Origin: Bacilli bacterium
GTDB taxonomy: Bacteria > Bacillota_I > Bacilli_A > RF39 > UBA660
DNA length: 61,698 bases
Direction: 5' to 3'
Assembly (NCBI GenBank): GCA_017409025.1
Contig: JAFQTN010000012.1
Coordinates: 1 to 61,698, forward strand
In this document: positions 44,656 to 54,561 of the stretch, one piece after another
How the letters are laid out: each line of letters starts with the position of its first letter
How positions within the stretch are numbered: position 1 is the first letter of the stretch
Program-made: the position numbers and the translations under genes
The notes under the pieces: generated by a model
Databases searched by the model: none
The model's input: the letters and a program-made list of their open reading frames with translations, nothing else
What the model was told of the DNA's origin: nothing

Positions 44656-45546
44656 ATGATTGATTTACACTTGCACACTACTTATTCTGATGGTACAGAT
44701 AATGTTAAAGAATTATTACTAAATGCTGAGTTAAAAAAGTTAGATATTATTTCTATAACTGATCATGATTCAGTGGATGCGTATAAGGAATTAGAAAATA
44801 AAGAAATAAGGGATCTTTTTAGTGGGAAGATTATAGTAGGAGTTGAATTAAAAACATATTATAATGGTATTCCTATGGAAGTATTAGGATATGGAATAGA
44901 TTATAATAAAATAAAAATAAATAAAATAGATATATATGACATTCAAGTTAAATCATTAAATGAATTAAAAAAACGTGCAAAAAAGTTAAAACTTATTTTT
45001 GATGAAAATATTAGTGTTTCTAGAACTGATCCGAGAAGAAAATATGCTTCATATGTATTAGCTAAGGAACTTTTGAAACATGAAGAAAATAAAGAAATAT
45101 TATTAGCGATAGGTCCTGAATTTGATGAAAATAGTTTTTATAGAATTCACACTAGTAACAAAAATAGTATATTTTATTATGATGAAAGTAAATATGGTAT
45201 ATCCTTAACAGAAGTTATTAATAATATTCATGATGCTGGTGGATTAGCATTTTTAGCTCATCCATTAGTATATCCTTTTGATGAAATGAATAAATTAAAT
45301 GAAATAGAAATAATTTTAAAAAATTATCAATTGGATGGATTAGAATGTGAATATCCTTTATTTAGTAATCAGGATAGGTCAAATCTAAAAAATATAGCAT
45401 TAAAATATAAAAAATATGTTAGTGGAGGGACAGATTACCACGCGAAGAATAAACCAAACATATATATAGGTACAGGAATTAACAATAATATTTATATAAC
45501 TAATGAATATATTAAAGATTGGTTTGTTAATGTAGATAAAATTTAA
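44656..45546 (+). CDS. PHP-domain phosphoesterase
   Basis: A 296-residue soluble enzyme of the polymerase-and-histidinol-phosphatase family, close to the YciV/TrpH (RNase AM) type. Metal ligands are visible in LHLHTTYSDGTD (residues 4-13), ISITDHDSVDAY (about 34-45), IIVGVELKTYY (E at about 64), FLAHPLVYP (H at about 199) and SGGTDYHAKNKP (about 258-266). Family members are 3'-5' nucleases on short RNA or nucleotide phosphatases; the exact substrate is not clear. AAGGAGG precedes the ATG. It stands alone between two terminators. Confidence 0.88.
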   Translation: MIDLHLHTTYSDGTDNVKELLLNAELKKLDIISITDHDSVDAYKELENKEIRDLFSGKIIVGVELKTYYNGIPMEVLGYGIDYNKIKINKIDIYDIQVKSLNELKKRAKKLKLIFDENISVSRTDPRRKYASYVLAKELLKHEENKEILLAIGPEFDENSFYRIHTSNKNSIFYYDESKYGISLTEVINNIHDAGGLAFLAHPLVYPFDEMNKLNEIEIILKNYQLDGLECEYPLFSNQDRSNLKNIALKYKKYVSGGTDYHAKNKPNIYIGTGINNNIYITNEYIKDWFVNVDKI

Positions 45547-45842: not shown

Positions 45843-48800
45843 ATGGGAAAATTAACTATTGATAGATTCAAAGAAATCAAAAGTAAGTTAGCGCATATTA
45901 GAGAAAAATATGAAGTATTAGAAAAAAATGAATCCAATGCCAAAGAAGAAAAACAAAAATTAATTGAACAATATCTTAACCTTCAAAATGAATTGTTATC
46001 ACATGATTTAAGTAGTATCTCACCAAAGTTATGGGAAGATTTGTTAATAATTTGTGATAAAGAACATATTGCTGATTTTTCCAAAACAAAAGCATATATA
46101 GATTTTTCAATAGTTGAATATTCTGAATTTGTCAATTATAAAGGATGTAAGATACAAAAAATAGATCAAATTAACAGGATAATCAATTCTGATAATTTTG
46201 ATGAAAACGTTATTGCTAAAAATCCAAATATGTTTATTTCTAATTCATTCGAAGAAGAAATAAAGAAAAAAATATATAGTAGTAAATTAACTATTGAGGA
46301 TTTATTCAACTTATCAAATGAACAACTAATTGAATTGCAATCTAAAAATATAAGAAATTCGTTTGAACCTAATACCAAACATCTAATTGATAATATTGGG
46401 CTAGAAAATGCTATGCAATTATTTTTAATATCAAAAGAAGATTATAAGATGGTTTATGATATTTCAGTTATGTTAAATTCAAGTGCACAATTGTATATTG
46501 AATCTACTAAAAGAGAAAAATTTTTAAACGACATTAAATCTTGTGAAGTATCACAAATAAAGGATATGTATTCTTCGTATTTAAAAGATGCGATTATGAA
46601 TGAAAAATATGGTCAAATTGATATTAGAAAACTGCCAGAAAAATTTGTTTTAGAAAATAGTGAAACCTTTTTATTGGGAGAAAGCATTCCTGAAGACTTA
46701 AGGGAAAGATATTATTCGAGAAAACTAACATGGGATGATATTATAAATAATATTTATTTATTTAAAAATATTCCAATAAGTAATTTTTTATCTACTTCTT
46801 CGGAATACTTCTATGATTTTTCACAATTTAGCAATTTCTTAGGTGATGATATATTACAAATATGCTTAAGTATATATCCAGAGTTGGTTAATTATATAAT
46901 AAAGGGTAATTTGACTTCCAAATTATGTTATTTTGCATTAGTAAACGACTTACCAAAATTAAATAAATCTATTGACACAAAAGAAAAGTTAATTAATTAT
47001 CTAGCACCTTTTTTTAAAAATCATAATGAATTAGTTAATAGGGAACAACTATTACTTTATGAACCATCTTTTTTCCTTTTAGATAAAGAACAACAAGCTT
47101 TAATAAATTTGTTTGGATTAGAAAATATTAAAAGATTTGAAAAAGAGACTGGGTTATTTTCTCATCAGTCAGGTTCAAATTCTCGTGGACTAGAAATGTT
47201 AAAAGCATGTGTCACGTTTAATAATTCCACTAGTAGGTATGAACTATTAAAAGACGGAATAGACTTCAAATATGGCACTTTGAACTATGAAGATTTTTTA
47301 AACAATTTGGCTTTGTATATAGATTCCATGAGGGCTAACGGAAATTTTTATGATTTTCCTGATTACGATTGGATGGAAGGAGAATTTAGGGAAAAACATC
47401 CTGAAATATTTATTGCTAAAGAAGCACCAGAAAAATTAAGAAAAGCATTTTATAATCACAGTATTACTCCACACGATTTATATCTACATAAAGAATATAT
47501 ACCATTTCTGATTGATAAAAATTTATCAAATACAATAACCGCTAATTTAAAATTAAACGTTCCTGCATTGGCAGCTTCTGACGGAACTATTGTTCCGAAT
47601 TCTGTTGAATTTGATAAGGAATATATATCACGATACGGCAATCTTAAATATTTACAATTAATATCTAAGTACGGAAAAATCTTAAAAAATCTAACTGTTG
47701 ATAGTTTAAACAACGAAATAGATGATGAAGAAAAAATTGAACTTTCAATAAGAAATGCAATATATAAAAGAATAATAACTTCTAATATAATAAGTTATGA
47801 ATATTTAAAAGATGTACCAGAATTTACTAAAGAACATCCCGAAATTTTTGTAGATTTTTCTAATTTAACAAGTATTCCCAACGAAGAGAGAGAAAAATTA
47901 GGATTTCACTATTATAATAAAATATTATCTTTTGATGATATAAGAAAATATCCTGAATTAGTAACCATTCTAAAGGATAAAGAATTATTAATAGCGTTCG
48001 GGAACAAAACTAGTTACAGAAGTTATACATTTCAATTAGACGATAAAGGAGTCATGTCAACCAGTAGTTGCAATAATAAGCATAGTGATCTAGAACTATT
48101 AAATATATATGGCAAAGAAAAATTTTTAGAATTATGTCGTAAATACGGAAGATATTTAAATGGAATTGTTAATTTGCTTGCCCAAGATACTGCTATTAAT
48201 GATTTTACTGAATACATGGAACCTATCAAAAATAGCAATAATAGGGAAGTTGATTTAAACAAAGTCACTAAAAGAATTGAAAAAATAATTTTAAGAGAAA
48301 TCTTAACCGGAAAAATGGATTATCATCCTGATGATGCTCCTGATTTTTTAAAAGAAAAACATCCTGAATTATTTTTAAATGAAGACGCACCTGAAGAATT
48401 AAAGAAATATTTTTATAACAAAAACGATAATCATCCATTAACATTTACAGTTTTAAAAGAACATCAAGATTGGCTTCCATATTTAGAAGGTAAATCAATT
48501 ATGACTGCTTTATTAAGAGGGACAGCTTTTAAAGAAAATATGCTACAATATTTTGTGTTGTTTGGTGCGAAAAATGCAATTAAATTAGGTATTAACAAAA
48601 ACGAAACTGTTACTGAAATGATAATGTCAGATCAAGTAACATTAATGAAAGATTGGTATGATAAAACTGGAGGTAAATTTATACCAGATTATGTAGTAAT
48701 GCAAAATATAAGATTGGAAGATGCTGACAAATTTTTAACATCAGGAGCTAATTGGAGTAGTTTAATGAAAATCAAAAGTTTTGCTAGTAAACCAGAATCA

Positions 48801-50783
48801 AGAGATGCAATGTTAAAATTGGCATACTCTTTCGGTGTATTCGATCAAGACCAAAGAGGTTTCAAAAAGTTATATGATTTATTAACTGTTTTACCAAGAA
48901 AAATTGAAACAAACAAAAAATACATAATCGAAAGAATCGAAGAACAAATAAGATTCTATAGCCAACAAAGAGTCATTTTTGAACGAAGAATTAAAATAGA
49001 TCTTGATGGCAATATTATCCCTATGACCGAAGAAGAAAAAGAAGAAGCATATAATGAAATGCTCGCCTATGTTAAAAACAATAATTATAATGCCCTATAT
49101 GATTTATTAAAGTCATTGAAAGAAGAAAATTTGGACATAGATTTTTCTCAAAATATATTTAGTCAAATATATATAAAAAATGATGATGGAAGTTATAGCC
49201 TAAACATAAATGAACAAAGATATCCTAAAACTGCTCAAGCAATAAGAGAAATTTTATCTAATCCTAATGAATTATCTATCTTAACACCAAGTAAAGCACA
49301 TCGCTATTTTGGTGGATTTAAATTAGAATATGATCCAGATTTTAGAGAATTTTTCTTATCAAATTATGATCAAATTATGAATAATAGTCAATATTTATCA
49401 AAAATATCCGTTATACAAAACAGATTCAAAGAAATAAAAGCGGTATATTCTAATGTAAATTTAACATTAGATTTAGCTATAAGCTACTTAGATAGTAATA
49501 AATATGTAAATGTAAATGTTGGAAATGAGAGAGTTACGCAGGCGGCAGCATTACAAAATTATTCACAAACTGATTTTGAAACATTACAAAAAATTTATAA
49601 TTATGGAAAACAAAGAGTTTTCAGTAGTATTCCAAGAATTGAATCAGAATGCATTATTGAACTTCCTTCAGGGAATTATTCTTATGAGATACTTAGGCTA
49701 GATGATCCTAGAGCAATGTCAATAGGATTTGAAAGTGATTGCTGTCAGAGATTAGGTGAACCTGCAGAAGTTTGTATGGAACATAGTATGGTAGATAAAA
49801 ATGGAAGAGTATTCATTGTAACCAACGATAAAGGCGAAGTTGTTGCGCAAAGTTGGGTATGGAGAAACAAGGATGTTTTATGTTTTGATAATATTGAAAT
49901 ACCTGATCAAAAAATGTGGGATAATGGTGTCTCAAGAGGACTAGAAGATTCCGGTATAAGAAATCAGTTTACTGATGACATACTAACTATTTATAAAATG
50001 GCAGCTCACGAATTAATGGATAAAGATGAGAAAGCATATAGAGAACTTCTTGAAAGTGGTAAAATTACAAAAGAGCAATATGATGGATTAAGATTAGGAA
50101 AAATAACAACCGGAGAAGGTTATAGTAACATAAAAGGTTCTATAGAAACATTACCTATTGATGAAAATCCGAAGCTAACAAGACCAATACCTTTTAAAGA
50201 ACCCGTAAGATTAAATAGAGGTTTATATATAAGCGATTCATCTACTCAATATATTATAGAAGAAAGAAAAGACAGAAAAGAATATATCGGTGAAACTATT
50301 ACAGTTCATCATGATGATTATATCGAATATAGTGATTCTAACTTTGATGAAATAGCCTTACTTACTCTTGGTAAATTGGAAATAGTTACCAAAGGAGATT
50401 CTGAATGTTTAGATAATTATGTTAATAAAGATTCAGAAGAAAAACATTTAGTTACACAAATAGCAAGAGATTATGGACTAAATTCTAAAACAACAAAAAT
50501 AGTAATGAATCCTAATTTTGCAATAATATATGATGTCAATGATGACGTTGTAAGGATAGCTGATTTATTATTTAACACTAAAGTTGATAATAATAAACAA
50601 CAAATGGATATTGAAAATATAGTAGTAATGCAAATAAGATTAGCATTAGAGCAAATAAGTAAAGATAAAAAAATTAATACATCTTTATTAGATAAAAAAC
50701 AAAAAGAAATGTACGATAAAGTAATGGGATTAACCGATGAATTAGATATAGAAAGAGGTGTAGGCAATGCAAGAAAAAATTAA
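45843..50783 (+). CDS. Giant (1,646-residue) repeat protein with C-terminal acyltransferase-like domain, unknown
   Basis: A very large cytoplasmic protein without signal peptide or membrane segments. A coiled-coil start is followed by at least five degenerate copies of a helical module spaced about 140-250 residues, recognisable by [HP]PE.F or N-x-F, then APE-LR/K-x-x-[FY]Y[NS].x-[LI]T and a short ..D...; copies begin near 46200, 46620, 47370, 47810 and 48330. The C-terminal part (49680-50150) has DDPRAMSIGFESDCCQRLGEPAEVC then FIVTNDKGEVVAQSWVWRNKDVLCFDNIE, reminiscent of GNAT-like sheets. GGATGGTG favours ATG 45843 over 45828. It overlaps the next gene by 17 bases. Function unknown. Confidence 0.8.
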   Translation: MGKLTIDRFKEIKSKLAHIREKYEVLEKNESNAKEEKQKLIEQYLNLQNELLSHDLSSISPKLWEDLLIICDKEHIADFSKTKAYIDFSIVEYSEFVNYKGCKIQKIDQINRIINSDNFDENVIAKNPNMFISNSFEEEIKKKIYSSKLTIEDLFNLSNEQLIELQSKNIRNSFEPNTKHLIDNIGLENAMQLFLISKEDYKMVYDISVMLNSSAQLYIESTKREKFLNDIKSCEVSQIKDMYSSYLKDAIMNEKYGQIDIRKLPEKFVLENSETFLLGESIPEDLRERYYSRKLTWDDIINNIYLFKNIPISNFLSTSSEYFYDFSQFSNFLGDDILQICLSIYPELVNYIIKGNLTSKLCYFALVNDLPKLNKSIDTKEKLINYLAPFFKNHNELVNREQLLLYEPSFFLLDKEQQALINLFGLENIKRFEKETGLFSHQSGSNSRGLEMLKACVTFNNSTSRYELLKDGIDFKYGTLNYEDFLNNLALYIDSMRANGNFYDFPDYDWMEGEFREKHPEIFIAKEAPEKLRKAFYNHSITPHDLYLHKEYIPFLIDKNLSNTITANLKLNVPALAASDGTIVPNSVEFDKEYISRYGNLKYLQLISKYGKILKNLTVDSLNNEIDDEEKIELSIRNAIYKRIITSNIISYEYLKDVPEFTKEHPEIFVDFSNLTSIPNEEREKLGFHYYNKILSFDDIRKYPELVTILKDKELLIAFGNKTSYRSYTFQLDDKGVMSTSSCNNKHSDLELLNIYGKEKFLELCRKYGRYLNGIVNLLAQDTAINDFTEYMEPIKNSNNREVDLNKVTKRIEKIILREILTGKMDYHPDDAPDFLKEKHPELFLNEDAPEELKKYFYNKNDNHPLTFTVLKEHQDWLPYLEGKSIMTALLRGTAFKENMLQYFVLFGAKNAIKLGINKNETVTEMIMSDQVTLMKDWYDKTGGKFIPDYVVMQNIRLEDADKFLTSGANWSSLMKIKSFASKPESRDAMLKLAYSFGVFDQDQRGFKKLYDLLTVLPRKIETNKKYIIERIEEQIRFYSQQRVIFERRIKIDLDGNIIPMTEEEKEEAYNEMLAYVKNNNYNALYDLLKSLKEENLDIDFSQNIFSQIYIKNDDGSYSLNINEQRYPKTAQAIREILSNPNELSILTPSKAHRYFGGFKLEYDPDFREFFLSNYDQIMNNSQYLSKISVIQNRFKEIKAVYSNVNLTLDLAISYLDSNKYVNVNVGNERVTQAAALQNYSQTDFETLQKIYNYGKQRVFSSIPRIESECIIELPSGNYSYEILRLDDPRAMSIGFESDCCQRLGEPAEVCMEHSMVDKNGRVFIVTNDKGEVVAQSWVWRNKDVLCFDNIEIPDQKMWDNGVSRGLEDSGIRNQFTDDILTIYKMAAHELMDKDEKAYRELLESGKITKEQYDGLRLGKITTGEGYSNIKGSIETLPIDENPKLTRPIPFKEPVRLNRGLYISDSSTQYIIEERKDRKEYIGETITVHHDDYIEYSDSNFDEIALLTLGKLEIVTKGDSECLDNYVNKDSEEKHLVTQIARDYGLNSKTTKIVMNPNFAIIYDVNDDVVRIADLLFNTKVDNNKQQMDIENIVVMQIRLALEQISKDKKINTSLLDKKQKEMYDKVMGLTDELDIERGVGNARKN

Positions 50784-51789
50784 TACAATTTTGATGGATG
50801 CTTTAAGCATAGACAAAACCAAATTAAATCAAAATTTAAAACAAATAATTAATGAATTACAAAATGCTTTCAAAAATAGTAAAGAATTAATTTTAGAAGC
50901 AAATAAAATTGATAAAAAAAACAGTAATGGATTTATAATTGATTTAACCATTATTGACAATATTTTTGAAAATATAAAAAAAGAAGATTTAATATATGGT
51001 AGTGTAACTCTTTCACAAAAAGATAATGATAAGAATTTAATATACGGCAAGCAAATAATGGATTCTGGAATTGTAATTGTAATAAATGATGGAAATCCAT
51101 ATGCTATTATCGAAATAATTTTAAGAAACATTTTAGCAGGAAACACCACAATAATTACTAATAATGGATATATGTATGGGACTAATCAATTAATAATTCA
51201 AATTGTCGAGGGAGTTTTAGAACAATTTAATATATCTAAAAAATTGATACAAATATATTTGACAGAAAACTATGATGATGTTTTATCTAATTATGCTAAC
51301 ATTGATTTAGTTATATGTATAGGAGACCATAATCTCCAAAGATTAATCGCTAAAAAAAGTAATAATAGAACAATTTATAGTGGATATGAGAATTTTGATT
51401 TATATATTGAAGATACTACTCACTTAGAATTTTTAAATAAAATAGTTAATACAGGTTTAAATATTCAAGTATATGTTAATAAAAATACTGAATTTGATAA
51501 CAATAATTCAATATTAGTTGATGATATTGATGAAGCTATAGCACAAATAAATTATAATGGTAATAGATATAGTTCTTCAATATTTACTAATTCAAAAGAA
51601 AATGCATCTAAATTTGTAAGAGAAGTTAAAACAAAAATAGTAACCATTAATACTAGTCCTACGATAGAAAGATTAATGGACATTAAACAAGCAGATTTAG
51701 TAAATGAAAAAACAATAGTTTATCCCATGAATTTTAAATTCAATGGTGGTAACAATAATATTATATTAAATGATACGTCTATCATTTAA
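50767..51789 (+). CDS. Degenerate ProA/aldehyde-dehydrogenase-like protein
   Basis: A 340-residue protein with the order of blocks of gamma-glutamyl-phosphate reductase (ProA). It has an N-terminal helix with EANKIDKKN, then SGIVIVINDGNPYAIIEIILRNILAGNTTIITNNGYMYGTNQLI (cofactor region), YSGYENFDLYIEDTTHLEFLNKIVNTGLN, ILVDDIDEAIAQINYNGNRYSSSIFTNSKENASKFVREV and a late VTINTSPTIER. The catalytic-cysteine region (normally ...GVCNA) reads GLNIQVYVNKN without Cys, and it is about 75 residues shorter than ProA. I infer a non-catalytic relative. GAAAGAGGTG precedes the ATG, and the 17-base overlap couples it to the giant protein. Confidence 0.55.
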   Translation: MQEKINTILMDALSIDKTKLNQNLKQIINELQNAFKNSKELILEANKIDKKNSNGFIIDLTIIDNIFENIKKEDLIYGSVTLSQKDNDKNLIYGKQIMDSGIVIVINDGNPYAIIEIILRNILAGNTTIITNNGYMYGTNQLIIQIVEGVLEQFNISKKLIQIYLTENYDDVLSNYANIDLVICIGDHNLQRLIAKKSNNRTIYSGYENFDLYIEDTTHLEFLNKIVNTGLNIQVYVNKNTEFDNNNSILVDDIDEAIAQINYNGNRYSSSIFTNSKENASKFVREVKTKIVTINTSPTIERLMDIKQADLVNEKTIVYPMNFKFNGGNNNIILNDTSII

Positions 51790-53706: not shown

Positions 53707-54561
53707 GTGTCAGTTGAAAAATTACAGATAATTAATAAAATATTTAAAAATGAAACAATTAGAACAGCATGGGATAAGAACGAGGAAAAATACTATATTA
53801 GTATTGTTGATATAGTAGAAATATTATCAGAGAGTGAAAATCCTAGGAAGTATTGGAACAAATTAAAAGAAAGACTTAAAAAAGAAGGGAACGAAACGGT
53901 GACAATTTGTCACCAGTTGAAATTAAAAGCAAAAGACGGAAAATATCGTATGACTGATGTTTGTGATATTGAAGGAATGTTCAGAATTATTGAATCAATT
54001 CCATCTAAGAATGCTGAGCCAATTAAAAGATGGTTAGCAAGACTTGGCAAAGAAAGAATAGATGAAGTGTTTGATCCATCTTTGAGCATACAAAGAGCAA
54101 TTGATTTATATAGGACTAAAGGTTATGATGAGGATTGGATTAGTAAGAGAATTAGAACATTACAAGAGAGAAAGAAATTAACTGATATTTGGTATGAATT
54201 AGGAATAGAAAAAGAACATGAATATGCAATCCTTACTAACGAAATATATCGAAGTTGGTCTGGTATGACAGCAAATCAATATAAAGAATTTAAAGGTTTA
54301 AGAAAAGAGAATCTTAGAGATAATATGGACAATCTAGAACTTATTTTATCTGATTTATCTGAAGAGGCAACAAAAAGAATTGCAGCAAAGAATAGGCCAA
54401 AGGGATTAAAAGAAAATATAAAAGTGGCTCATATTGGTGGTAATGTTGCTAAAGTTGCAAGGGATGAGTTAGAAGAAAAACTTGGAGAAATTATTGTAAA
54501 TCCTTCAAATAGATTATATAATGAAAGTGGAGAAAATAATTTTTTAGGAGATGATAATTAA
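53707..54561 (+). CDS. BRO-family (Bro-N) antirepressor-like protein
   Basis: A 284-residue protein beginning with a Bro-N domain (about 10-110: NETIRTAWDKNEEKYYISIVDIVEILSESENPRKYWNKLKERLKKEGNETVTICHQLKL ... YRMTDVCDIEGMFRIIESIPSKNAEPIKRWLARLG), typical of phage antirepressors and related DNA-binding proteins. The C-terminal part (GYDEDWISKRIRTLQERKKLTDIWYELGI ... IAAKNRPKGLKENI) matches the long BRO type found on bacterial chromosomes. The start is GTG with AAGAGG. Codon use (more AGG, GAG, GGG) differs from neighbours, suggesting transfer. Its stop overlaps the pduL start (TAATG). Confidence 0.88.
   Translation: MSVEKLQIINKIFKNETIRTAWDKNEEKYYISIVDIVEILSESENPRKYWNKLKERLKKEGNETVTICHQLKLKAKDGKYRMTDVCDIEGMFRIIESIPSKNAEPIKRWLARLGKERIDEVFDPSLSIQRAIDLYRTKGYDEDWISKRIRTLQERKKLTDIWYELGIEKEHEYAILTNEIYRSWSGMTANQYKEFKGLRKENLRDNMDNLELILSDLSEEATKRIAAKNRPKGLKENIKVAHIGGNVAKVARDELEEKLGEIIVNPSNRLYNESGENNFLGDDN

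What the first reader, a model, noticed from the sequence alone, without database searches (positions are those of the whole stretch)
45843..51789. Giant repeat protein translationally coupled to a catalytically dead ProA-like protein
A 1,646-residue cytoplasmic protein with at least five diverged copies of a helical module and a C-terminal CC-containing acyltransferase-like domain overlaps by 17 bases a protein with ProA/aldehyde-dehydrogenase architecture but no catalytic cysteine. Large coupled repeat protein plus pseudoenzyme, in an accessory region with a phage-type BRO gene nearby, could be a defence, polymer-modifying or scaffold system not described before.
Basis: partly seen in the sequence, partly recalled or inferred. 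Interest (0 to 1): 0.65.

Follow-up and report, generated by a model that had tools for sequence, protein, structure and literature searches.

The report
Repeat effector with dead-enzyme partner cassette
A gut bacterium encodes a very large repeat protein with a conserved, probably acetyltransferase-like tail, always followed by a co-translated, catalytically dead relative of a proline-synthesis enzyme; in one relative this tail and partner sit exactly where exported toxins carry their toxin and immunity genes, so the pair is probably an undescribed effector with its own inhibitor.

Summary
The giant ORF (45843-50783, 1646 aa, no transmembrane segment) carries five or six diverged helical modules and a CC-motif C-terminal domain. 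It overlaps by 17 bp a 340-aa ProA homologue (50767-51789). That partner lacks the catalytic-cysteine segment and also the GAEIGISTQK...RGPMG loop. The partner was found in 13 of 291 genomes of the family, next to a CC-domain protein in all 12 assessable cases. In 16 of 17 pairs examined the genes overlap. The partner was not found outside this bacterial family (class sample of 395 genomes), and no family member tested has a true ProA.

The CC domain is a larger family, in 68 of 291 genomes, also behind LRR repeats and in a cyanophage. Weak models place it with GNAT acetyltransferases. N-termini diverge fast while CC domains are conserved. In genome G155 the last 741 aa plus the partner (73% and 87% identical to G004) sit on a different N-terminus. 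That N-terminus has WXG100-like companion genes, and in sibling genomes its relatives carry ADP-ribosyltransferase toxin domains.

Best reading: an effector with a cognate immunity or control protein (about 0.45). It is not proline synthesis, and there is no sign of a defence island. Activity is untested.

The parts
45843..50783 (+). giant repeat protein with CC-type C-terminal effector-like domain (1646 aa; alternative start 45828)
   Evidence: ORF; full-length homologues L015-L018 and further family genomes
46203..46391 (+). helical module 1 (weak)
   Evidence: module profile
46629..46748 (+). helical module 2 (weak)
   Evidence: module profile
46911..47153 (+). possible further module, found in the window protein only
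   Evidence: module profile
47343..47645 (+). helical module 3 (clear: HPE.F...APE.L...FY...)
   Evidence: module profile, conserved in homologues
47802..48125 (+). helical module 4 (clear)
   Evidence: module profile
48321..48581 (+). helical module 5 (clear; also present in the G155 swap)
   Evidence: module profile
49281..50264 (+). CC-type C-terminal domain, GNAT-like strand order; most conserved part (pN/pS 0.11-0.25)
   Evidence: A3 profile E 1e-154; AF2 and Foldseek; rates
49740..49745 (+). CC motif (Cys-Cys, aa 1300-1301), kept in nearly all relatives aligned (GNCF in L020)
   Evidence: alignments
50265..50780 (+). C-terminal tail domain after the CC domain; includes the conserved ERG codons near its end
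   Evidence: conserved in homologues; its strands and helices are the best-scored part of a weak model
50751..50760 (+). likely ribosome-binding site of the partner (GAAAGAGGTG), encoded by the giant's near-terminal ERG codons
   Evidence: the giants' ERG codons supply a like purine-rich site in the pair subfamily; not in L076 or L086
50767..51789 (+). ProA-derived pseudoenzyme partner (340 aa), proposed immunity or control protein

Best explanation
The pair is an effector with its cognate control protein. The giant is a soluble modular protein. Its fast-changing N-terminal helical repeats are inferred to sense or bind a target. Its slowly changing C-terminal CC domain, probably GNAT-like, is inferred to be the harmful or modifying activity. 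The ProA-like partner has lost the parts ProA needs for catalysis. It is made from the same mRNA by overlapping translation and is inferred to bind the effector region and hold it inactive, as an immunity protein or antitoxin. Shown: the architecture, strict pairing, loss of catalytic segments, rate contrast, and transfer of the last 741 aa plus partner onto a toxin-type N-terminus. Inferred: GNAT chemistry, toxicity, binding, neutralisation, and what activates the window protein.
For: (1) Partner adjacent to a CC-domain protein in 12 of 12 assessable genomes of 13 hits in 291, plus L015-L018. (2) 17 pairs: overlap of 1-41 nt in 16, a 9-nt gap in one; the giants' ERG codons supply a likely ribosome-binding site in the pair subfamily. 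(3) The G155 protein (1874 aa) shares its last 741 aa (73%) and its partner (87%) with G004, but not its N-terminus. That N-terminus and the three small ORFs before it recur in G131 (35-84% identity), where an ORF on another contig that continues the homology holds an ADP-ribosyltransferase domain (1.4e-13). Another relative (G193) ends in one (6.8e-15). (4) EssC is over its cut-off in G155 and in the window's genome. (5) N-terminal 500 aa pN/pS 0.60-0.77, CC domain 0.11-0.25. (6) Foldseek's 50 best PDB matches are nearly all GNAT or related acyltransferase folds, best Z 8.1 to NatD. (7) GNAT toxins held by diverse antitoxins are known (PMC9177977), and T7SSb immunity genes often lie next to their toxin (PMC10765036).
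Against: No toxicity or binding has been tested. Structure models are weak (pLDDT 50 and 54), and a Z of about 8 can reflect a common arrangement. The GNAT acetyl-CoA motif (R/Q-x-x-G-x-G/A) is not seen after strand 4. The window protein has no LXG or WXG N-terminus, so it is probably not exported. The G155 fusion is a single contig from a bin with 7% contamination; a chimeric assembly is unlikely (in-frame ORF, diverged giant repeats before the junction) but not excluded. WXG100 scores are under Pfam's cut-off. Most CC-domain proteins, including LRR arrays, have no ProA-like partner. No tandem or orphan partner copies, typical of immunity genes, were seen.
Confidence: 0.45

Rival explanations
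1. An intracellular sensor-effector immune protein. The N-terminal repeats (or LRRs in relatives) detect an invader and switch on the CC domain, and the ProA-like protein is a regulatory subunit.
For: In the G252 array three LRR-CC genes are 95-100% identical over the C-terminal ~550 aa but about 50% (copies 0-1) or 71-94% (copies 1-2) in the LRR part. No signal peptide or transmembrane segment in the giant. A paralogue in G138 keeps the N-terminal repeats but ends in a nucleotidyltransferase-like motif.
Against: No PADLOC match for giant or partner. Neighbours are housekeeping genes. The partner is absent from the LRR arrays.
Confidence: 0.2
2. The partner is not an inhibitor but an activator or permissive cofactor of the CC domain, in the way CysK is needed by the CdiA-CT toxin of E. 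coli 536 (PMC5562914).
For: The partner keeps the ProA-derived core and conserved positions (DGNPY, GTNQ, SGYENFDLYI) that are not ProA catalytic residues. It is co-translated and never lost by this CC subfamily except in multi-copy loci and G034.
Against: In L076 and L077 it is cut down to the N-terminal half (195 and 161 aa), and many CC proteins work, if they work, without it.
Confidence: 0.2
3. A housekeeping modification system: the CC domain acylates a cell component, and the dead ProA is a scaffold that holds the substrate or cofactor.
For: Purifying selection on both genes (partner pN/pS 0.33-0.43); loci sit among housekeeping genes.
Against: Patchy presence (13 of 291 genomes), different neighbours in each genome, fast N-terminal change, and the G155 swap onto a toxin-type N-terminus.
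Confidence: 0.1
4. The partner is a working gamma-glutamyl phosphate reductase in proline synthesis.
For: Only its ancestry: profile match to TIGR00407 and to solved ProA structures.
Against: Catalytic Cys segment and GAEIGISTQK..RGPMG loop missing; two relatives keep only half the protein.
Confidence: 0.02

Closest known systems
ProA / gamma-glutamyl phosphate reductase (TIGR00407; PDB 1o20, 8zok, 1vlu)
   Same: Homologous over aa 10-230 and 248-299 of the partner
   Different: Catalytic Cys segment and GAEIGISTQK..RGPMG segment missing; score far under the family cut-off; genetically tied to a giant protein
Type VIIb (LXG-type) polymorphic toxins with small helical export partners and an adjacent immunity gene (PMC9600955, PMC10765036)
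   Same: In G155 and G131: three small helical ORFs, a helical N-terminus with a shared central region, a swapped C-terminus, and in G155 the partner gene just downstream
   Different: No LXG match (PF04740); the window protein and most homologues lack this N-terminus altogether
GNAT toxins of type II toxin-antitoxin systems (TacT, AtaT; PMC9177977)
   Same: Possible GNAT-like domain as the active part, with an adjacent cognate partner gene
   Different: Domain lies near the end of a 1,200-1,900-aa protein, lacks a visible acetyl-CoA motif, and the partner is not DUF1778 or DUF4065
LRR_5 (BspA-type) repeat proteins
   Same: Relatives of the CC domain in the same bacterial family carry LRR_5 N-termini
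   Different: The window protein has a different helical repeat that matches no Pfam family

Membership tests
ProA / gamma-glutamyl phosphate reductase | shared sequence core of the aldehyde dehydrogenase superfamily | tested here: met
   profile matches to 8zok, 1vlu and 1o20, E 2e-14 to 1e-12; TIGR00407 8e-18
ProA / gamma-glutamyl phosphate reductase | catalytic cysteine in the ..RPxVCN.. segment | tested here: not met
   segment absent in all partners aligned
ProA / gamma-glutamyl phosphate reductase | GAEIGISTQK..RGPMG loop | tested here: not met
   absent in all partners aligned
ProA / gamma-glutamyl phosphate reductase | score over the curated family cut-off | tested here: not met
   64 against 317 bits; 41.6 bits for the best piece in the whole-genome search
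GNAT acetyltransferase superfamily | GNAT fold | tested here: inconclusive
   strand order b-a-a-b-b-b-a-b; Foldseek best PDB E 4.5e-3, top rows GNATs; Z 8.1; but pLDDT 53.7 and no PDB sequence match
GNAT acetyltransferase superfamily | acetyl-CoA motif R/Q-x-x-G-x-G/A after strand 4 | tested here: not met
   not seen by inspection of the CC-domain alignments
Type VIIb LXG polymorphic toxin | LXG domain (PF04740) | tested here: not met
   no match in the window's genome or G155
Type VIIb LXG polymorphic toxin | WXG100-like companion genes upstream (G155 only) | tested here: inconclusive
   PF06013 E 0.0012 and 0.00098, under the cut-off
Type VIIb LXG polymorphic toxin | type VIIb apparatus (EssC) in the genome | tested here: met
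   TIGR03928 over cut-off in 11 of 16 genomes tested, own and G155 included; under it in 5, among them pair-bearing G138, G213, G234 and G105
Type VIIb LXG polymorphic toxin | same N-terminus carrying different C-terminal toxin domains | tested here: met
   for the G155 N-terminus only: relatives with ADP-ribosyltransferase domains
GNAT type II toxin-antitoxin system | DUF1778 (RHH) antitoxin next to the toxin | tested here: not met
   partner is ProA-derived
Known anti-phage defence system (PADLOC) | match of giant or partner to a PADLOC model | tested here: not met
   none up to E 1
PcfJ-like proteins (PF14284) | PcfJ domain | tested here: inconclusive
   no Pfam match; hhalign probability 1% against a two-sequence alignment; two PcfJ-like phage proteins among weak fold matches

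The most novel reading that the evidence does not exclude
A catalytically dead member of the aldehyde dehydrogenase superfamily serves as the immunity or antitoxin protein of an undescribed CC-type, GNAT-like effector domain. The same effector domain is used in three settings: behind intracellular helical repeats, behind LRR repeats in gene arrays, and as the toxin part of type VII-like exported proteins.
Probability: 0.33. Interest if true: 0.72.

Novelty: new variant of a known kind. Interest (0 to 1): 0.5.

Why it matters
If true, a metabolic enzyme fold has been turned into a toxin-control protein, and an unnamed effector domain family shared by gut bacteria and a cyanophage would gain a testable function. 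It would also offer a natural inhibitor for that domain, and explain large proteins with no named domain in a family of uncultured gut Bacilli.

Tried and rejected
Pfam, NCBIfam, PHROGs and PADLOC on the giant: nothing of note. PDB by sequence for the CC domain: nothing. Viral scans for the partner and for the CC domain by peptide or DNA pattern: no relative; only MaMV-type phage proteins, via a MaMV query. Plasmids: no match. PcfJ as the CC domain's family: hhalign 1% against a poor template, not excluded. AF2 on the C-terminal 527 aa: pLDDT 50. The nucleotidyltransferase-like tail in L071 has no meaningful Pfam, NCBIfam or PDB match and rests on a motif. Defence-island idea: PADLOC hits near the pairs are few and several look like housekeeping lookalikes, such as cysteine desulfurase for DndA/SspA. 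Truncated partners L076 and L077: no confident remnant of the missing half downstream. The partner's 13th genome hit (G076) lies at a contig edge, and its open frame begins with RsmH-like sequence (recognised from memory), so it was not counted. Library search for a dead ALDH/ProA pseudoenzyme: nothing.

Full report
What is there. The window holds a 1646-aa ORF at 45843-50783 and a 340-aa ORF at 50767-51789, overlapping by 17 nt. The giant has no hydrophobic segment that looks transmembrane. No Pfam, NCBIfam, PHROGs or PADLOC family matches it meaningfully. A profile built from its own repeated motif finds six stretches in it and 3-5 in most relatives. Three of them (aa 506-606, 659-766, 832-918) are clear; the others are weak. 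The profile was made from these proteins, so it shows the repeat but does not identify it.

The partner. It is homologous to gamma-glutamyl phosphate reductase: aa 10-230 align with residues 23-250 and aa 251-299 with residues 332-380 of the T. maritima enzyme 1o20. Aligned with true ProA from related families of the class it lacks the whole segment around the catalytic cysteine and the GAEIGISTQK..RGPMG segment. None of the 37 genomes of the window's family in that test (its own included) has a match over the ProA cut-off. The partner is under purifying selection (pN/pS 0.33-0.43), so it is not a decaying gene, although two relatives keep only its N-terminal half.

Pairing. In 291 genomes of the same family the partner was found in 13. 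In 12 of them it lies directly behind a CC-domain protein; the 13th is at a contig edge. Three further full-length pairs come from named MAG contigs and one from the same genus, G004. A very diverged pair occurs in G087. In 16 of 17 pairs the genes overlap by 1-41 nt, and the giants' conserved ERG codons near the C-terminus read as a purine-rich ribosome-binding site in the pair subfamily. Several CC-domain giants have no partner of their own (G034, and extra copies in G212 and G253), so the dependence is one-sided. In a class-wide sample of 395 genomes all partner hits fell in this family. In a phylum-wide sample all CC-domain hits did too.

The CC domain. It is found in 68 of 291 family genomes. 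It sits behind LRR_5 repeats in L079 and L080 and behind other N-termini elsewhere, and occurs in gp068 of Microcystis phage MaMV-DC. The conserved core is DP..G..T.CC...(A/G)......R.F.......(A)QSW.W.N...CFDN(I/V)E. Two models are weak (pLDDT 50.4 and 53.7). Both give the strand and helix order of a GNAT fold. Foldseek's top PDB rows are GNAT or related acyltransferases, with E no better than 4.5e-3, and the structural realignment reaches Z 8.1 with NatD and 7.7 with Hat1. The tool warns that Z under about 8 can mean only a common arrangement. I therefore call it GNAT-like with moderate confidence, and note that the acetyl-CoA motif is not visible.

Rates. In three pairs of giants compared, the first 500 aa are 36-52% identical with pN/pS 0.60-0.77. 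The CC domain is 79-93% identical with 0.11-0.25. In the G252 array of three LRR-CC genes the C-terminal ~550 aa are 95-100% identical while the LRR parts differ, which suggests recent homogenisation of the C-terminus. This looks like a variable recognition part on a fixed active part; it is an inference from rates.

The swap. In G155 the protein is 1874 aa. Its last 741 aa are 73% identical and its partner 87% identical to those of G004, while its N-terminus is unrelated. Three small helical ORFs precede it; one has a sub-threshold WXG100 match. The same trio and N-terminus recur in G131. There the gene runs to a contig end, and an ORF on another contig that continues the homology carries an ADP-ribosyltransferase domain. 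A 5100-aa protein in G193 that shares the central region also ends in such a domain. LXG-type toxins of type VIIb secretion have this layout: helical N-terminus, small helical export partners, variable C-terminal toxin and an adjacent immunity gene (PMC9600955, PMC10765036). EssC is over its cut-off in 11 of 16 genomes tested, including G155 and the window's own, but not in pair-bearing G138, G213, G234 or G105. In G155 the giant's C-terminal region and the ProA-like partner thus occupy the toxin and immunity positions. This is the main reason for the effector-control reading. It rests on one contig of a bin with 7% contamination, and neither toxicity nor inhibition was tested.

The window protein. 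It lacks that N-terminus and any LXG match, so it is probably not exported by this route. It could be a toxin-antitoxin-like or sensor-effector protein acting inside its own cell. The defence reading has no PADLOC support. Neighbours of the pairs include recA, argS, smc, ribosomal protein genes, thiI and cysteine desulfurase genes.

Verdict. The functional guess is partly right. The most likely mechanism is an effector with a ProA-derived immunity or control protein (0.45). An activator role, an intracellular immune role, and a housekeeping modification role remain open.

Noticed in passing
L071:1137-5573 (-), genome G138: A 1478-aa paralogue next to the pair keeps the giant's N-terminal repeats but ends in a nucleotidyltransferase-like motif (GSTGRGTNKPHDGDFD ... 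IDLDL) instead of the CC domain: a swapped C-terminus. Motif only; no HMM match.
   Followed up: partly
L075:10854-12701 (-), genome G212: A 615-aa protein with a zincin-like HExxH motif (HENGH ... NETINDMF) lies between two giants that share one partner.
   Followed up: partly
L079:2015-11493 (+), genome G252: Three tandem LRR_5 + CC-domain genes whose C-terminal ~550 aa are 95-100% identical while the LRR parts are far less alike: looks like gene conversion of the C-terminus with diversified LRRs.
   Followed up: partly
L117, L118 and L121 (genomes G131, G193): Very large T7-type toxin candidates with ADP-ribosyltransferase and (G131) transglutaminase-like domains, preceded by small helical ORFs.
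   Followed up: partly
window 53707-54561 (+): BRO-N / DinD-like gene matching the PADLOC phage-defence candidate PDC-S13 at 1e-113.
   Followed up: no
L087:2519-4612 (+), Microcystis phage MaMV-DC gp068: Phage protein of unknown function with a clear CC domain (LGEYTKCCQ...IIAQSWTW...LCFDNCE); relatives in four IMG/VR contigs.
   Followed up: partly
window 50743-50766: The giant's near-terminal conserved ERG may be kept because its codons are the partner's ribosome-binding site, a nucleotide-level constraint visible in protein alignments.
   Followed up: partly
window 44656-45546 (+): PHP-domain phosphoesterase related to RNase RNM / nucleoside bisphosphate phosphatase, upstream of the giant and separated by about 280 bp.
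   Followed up: no
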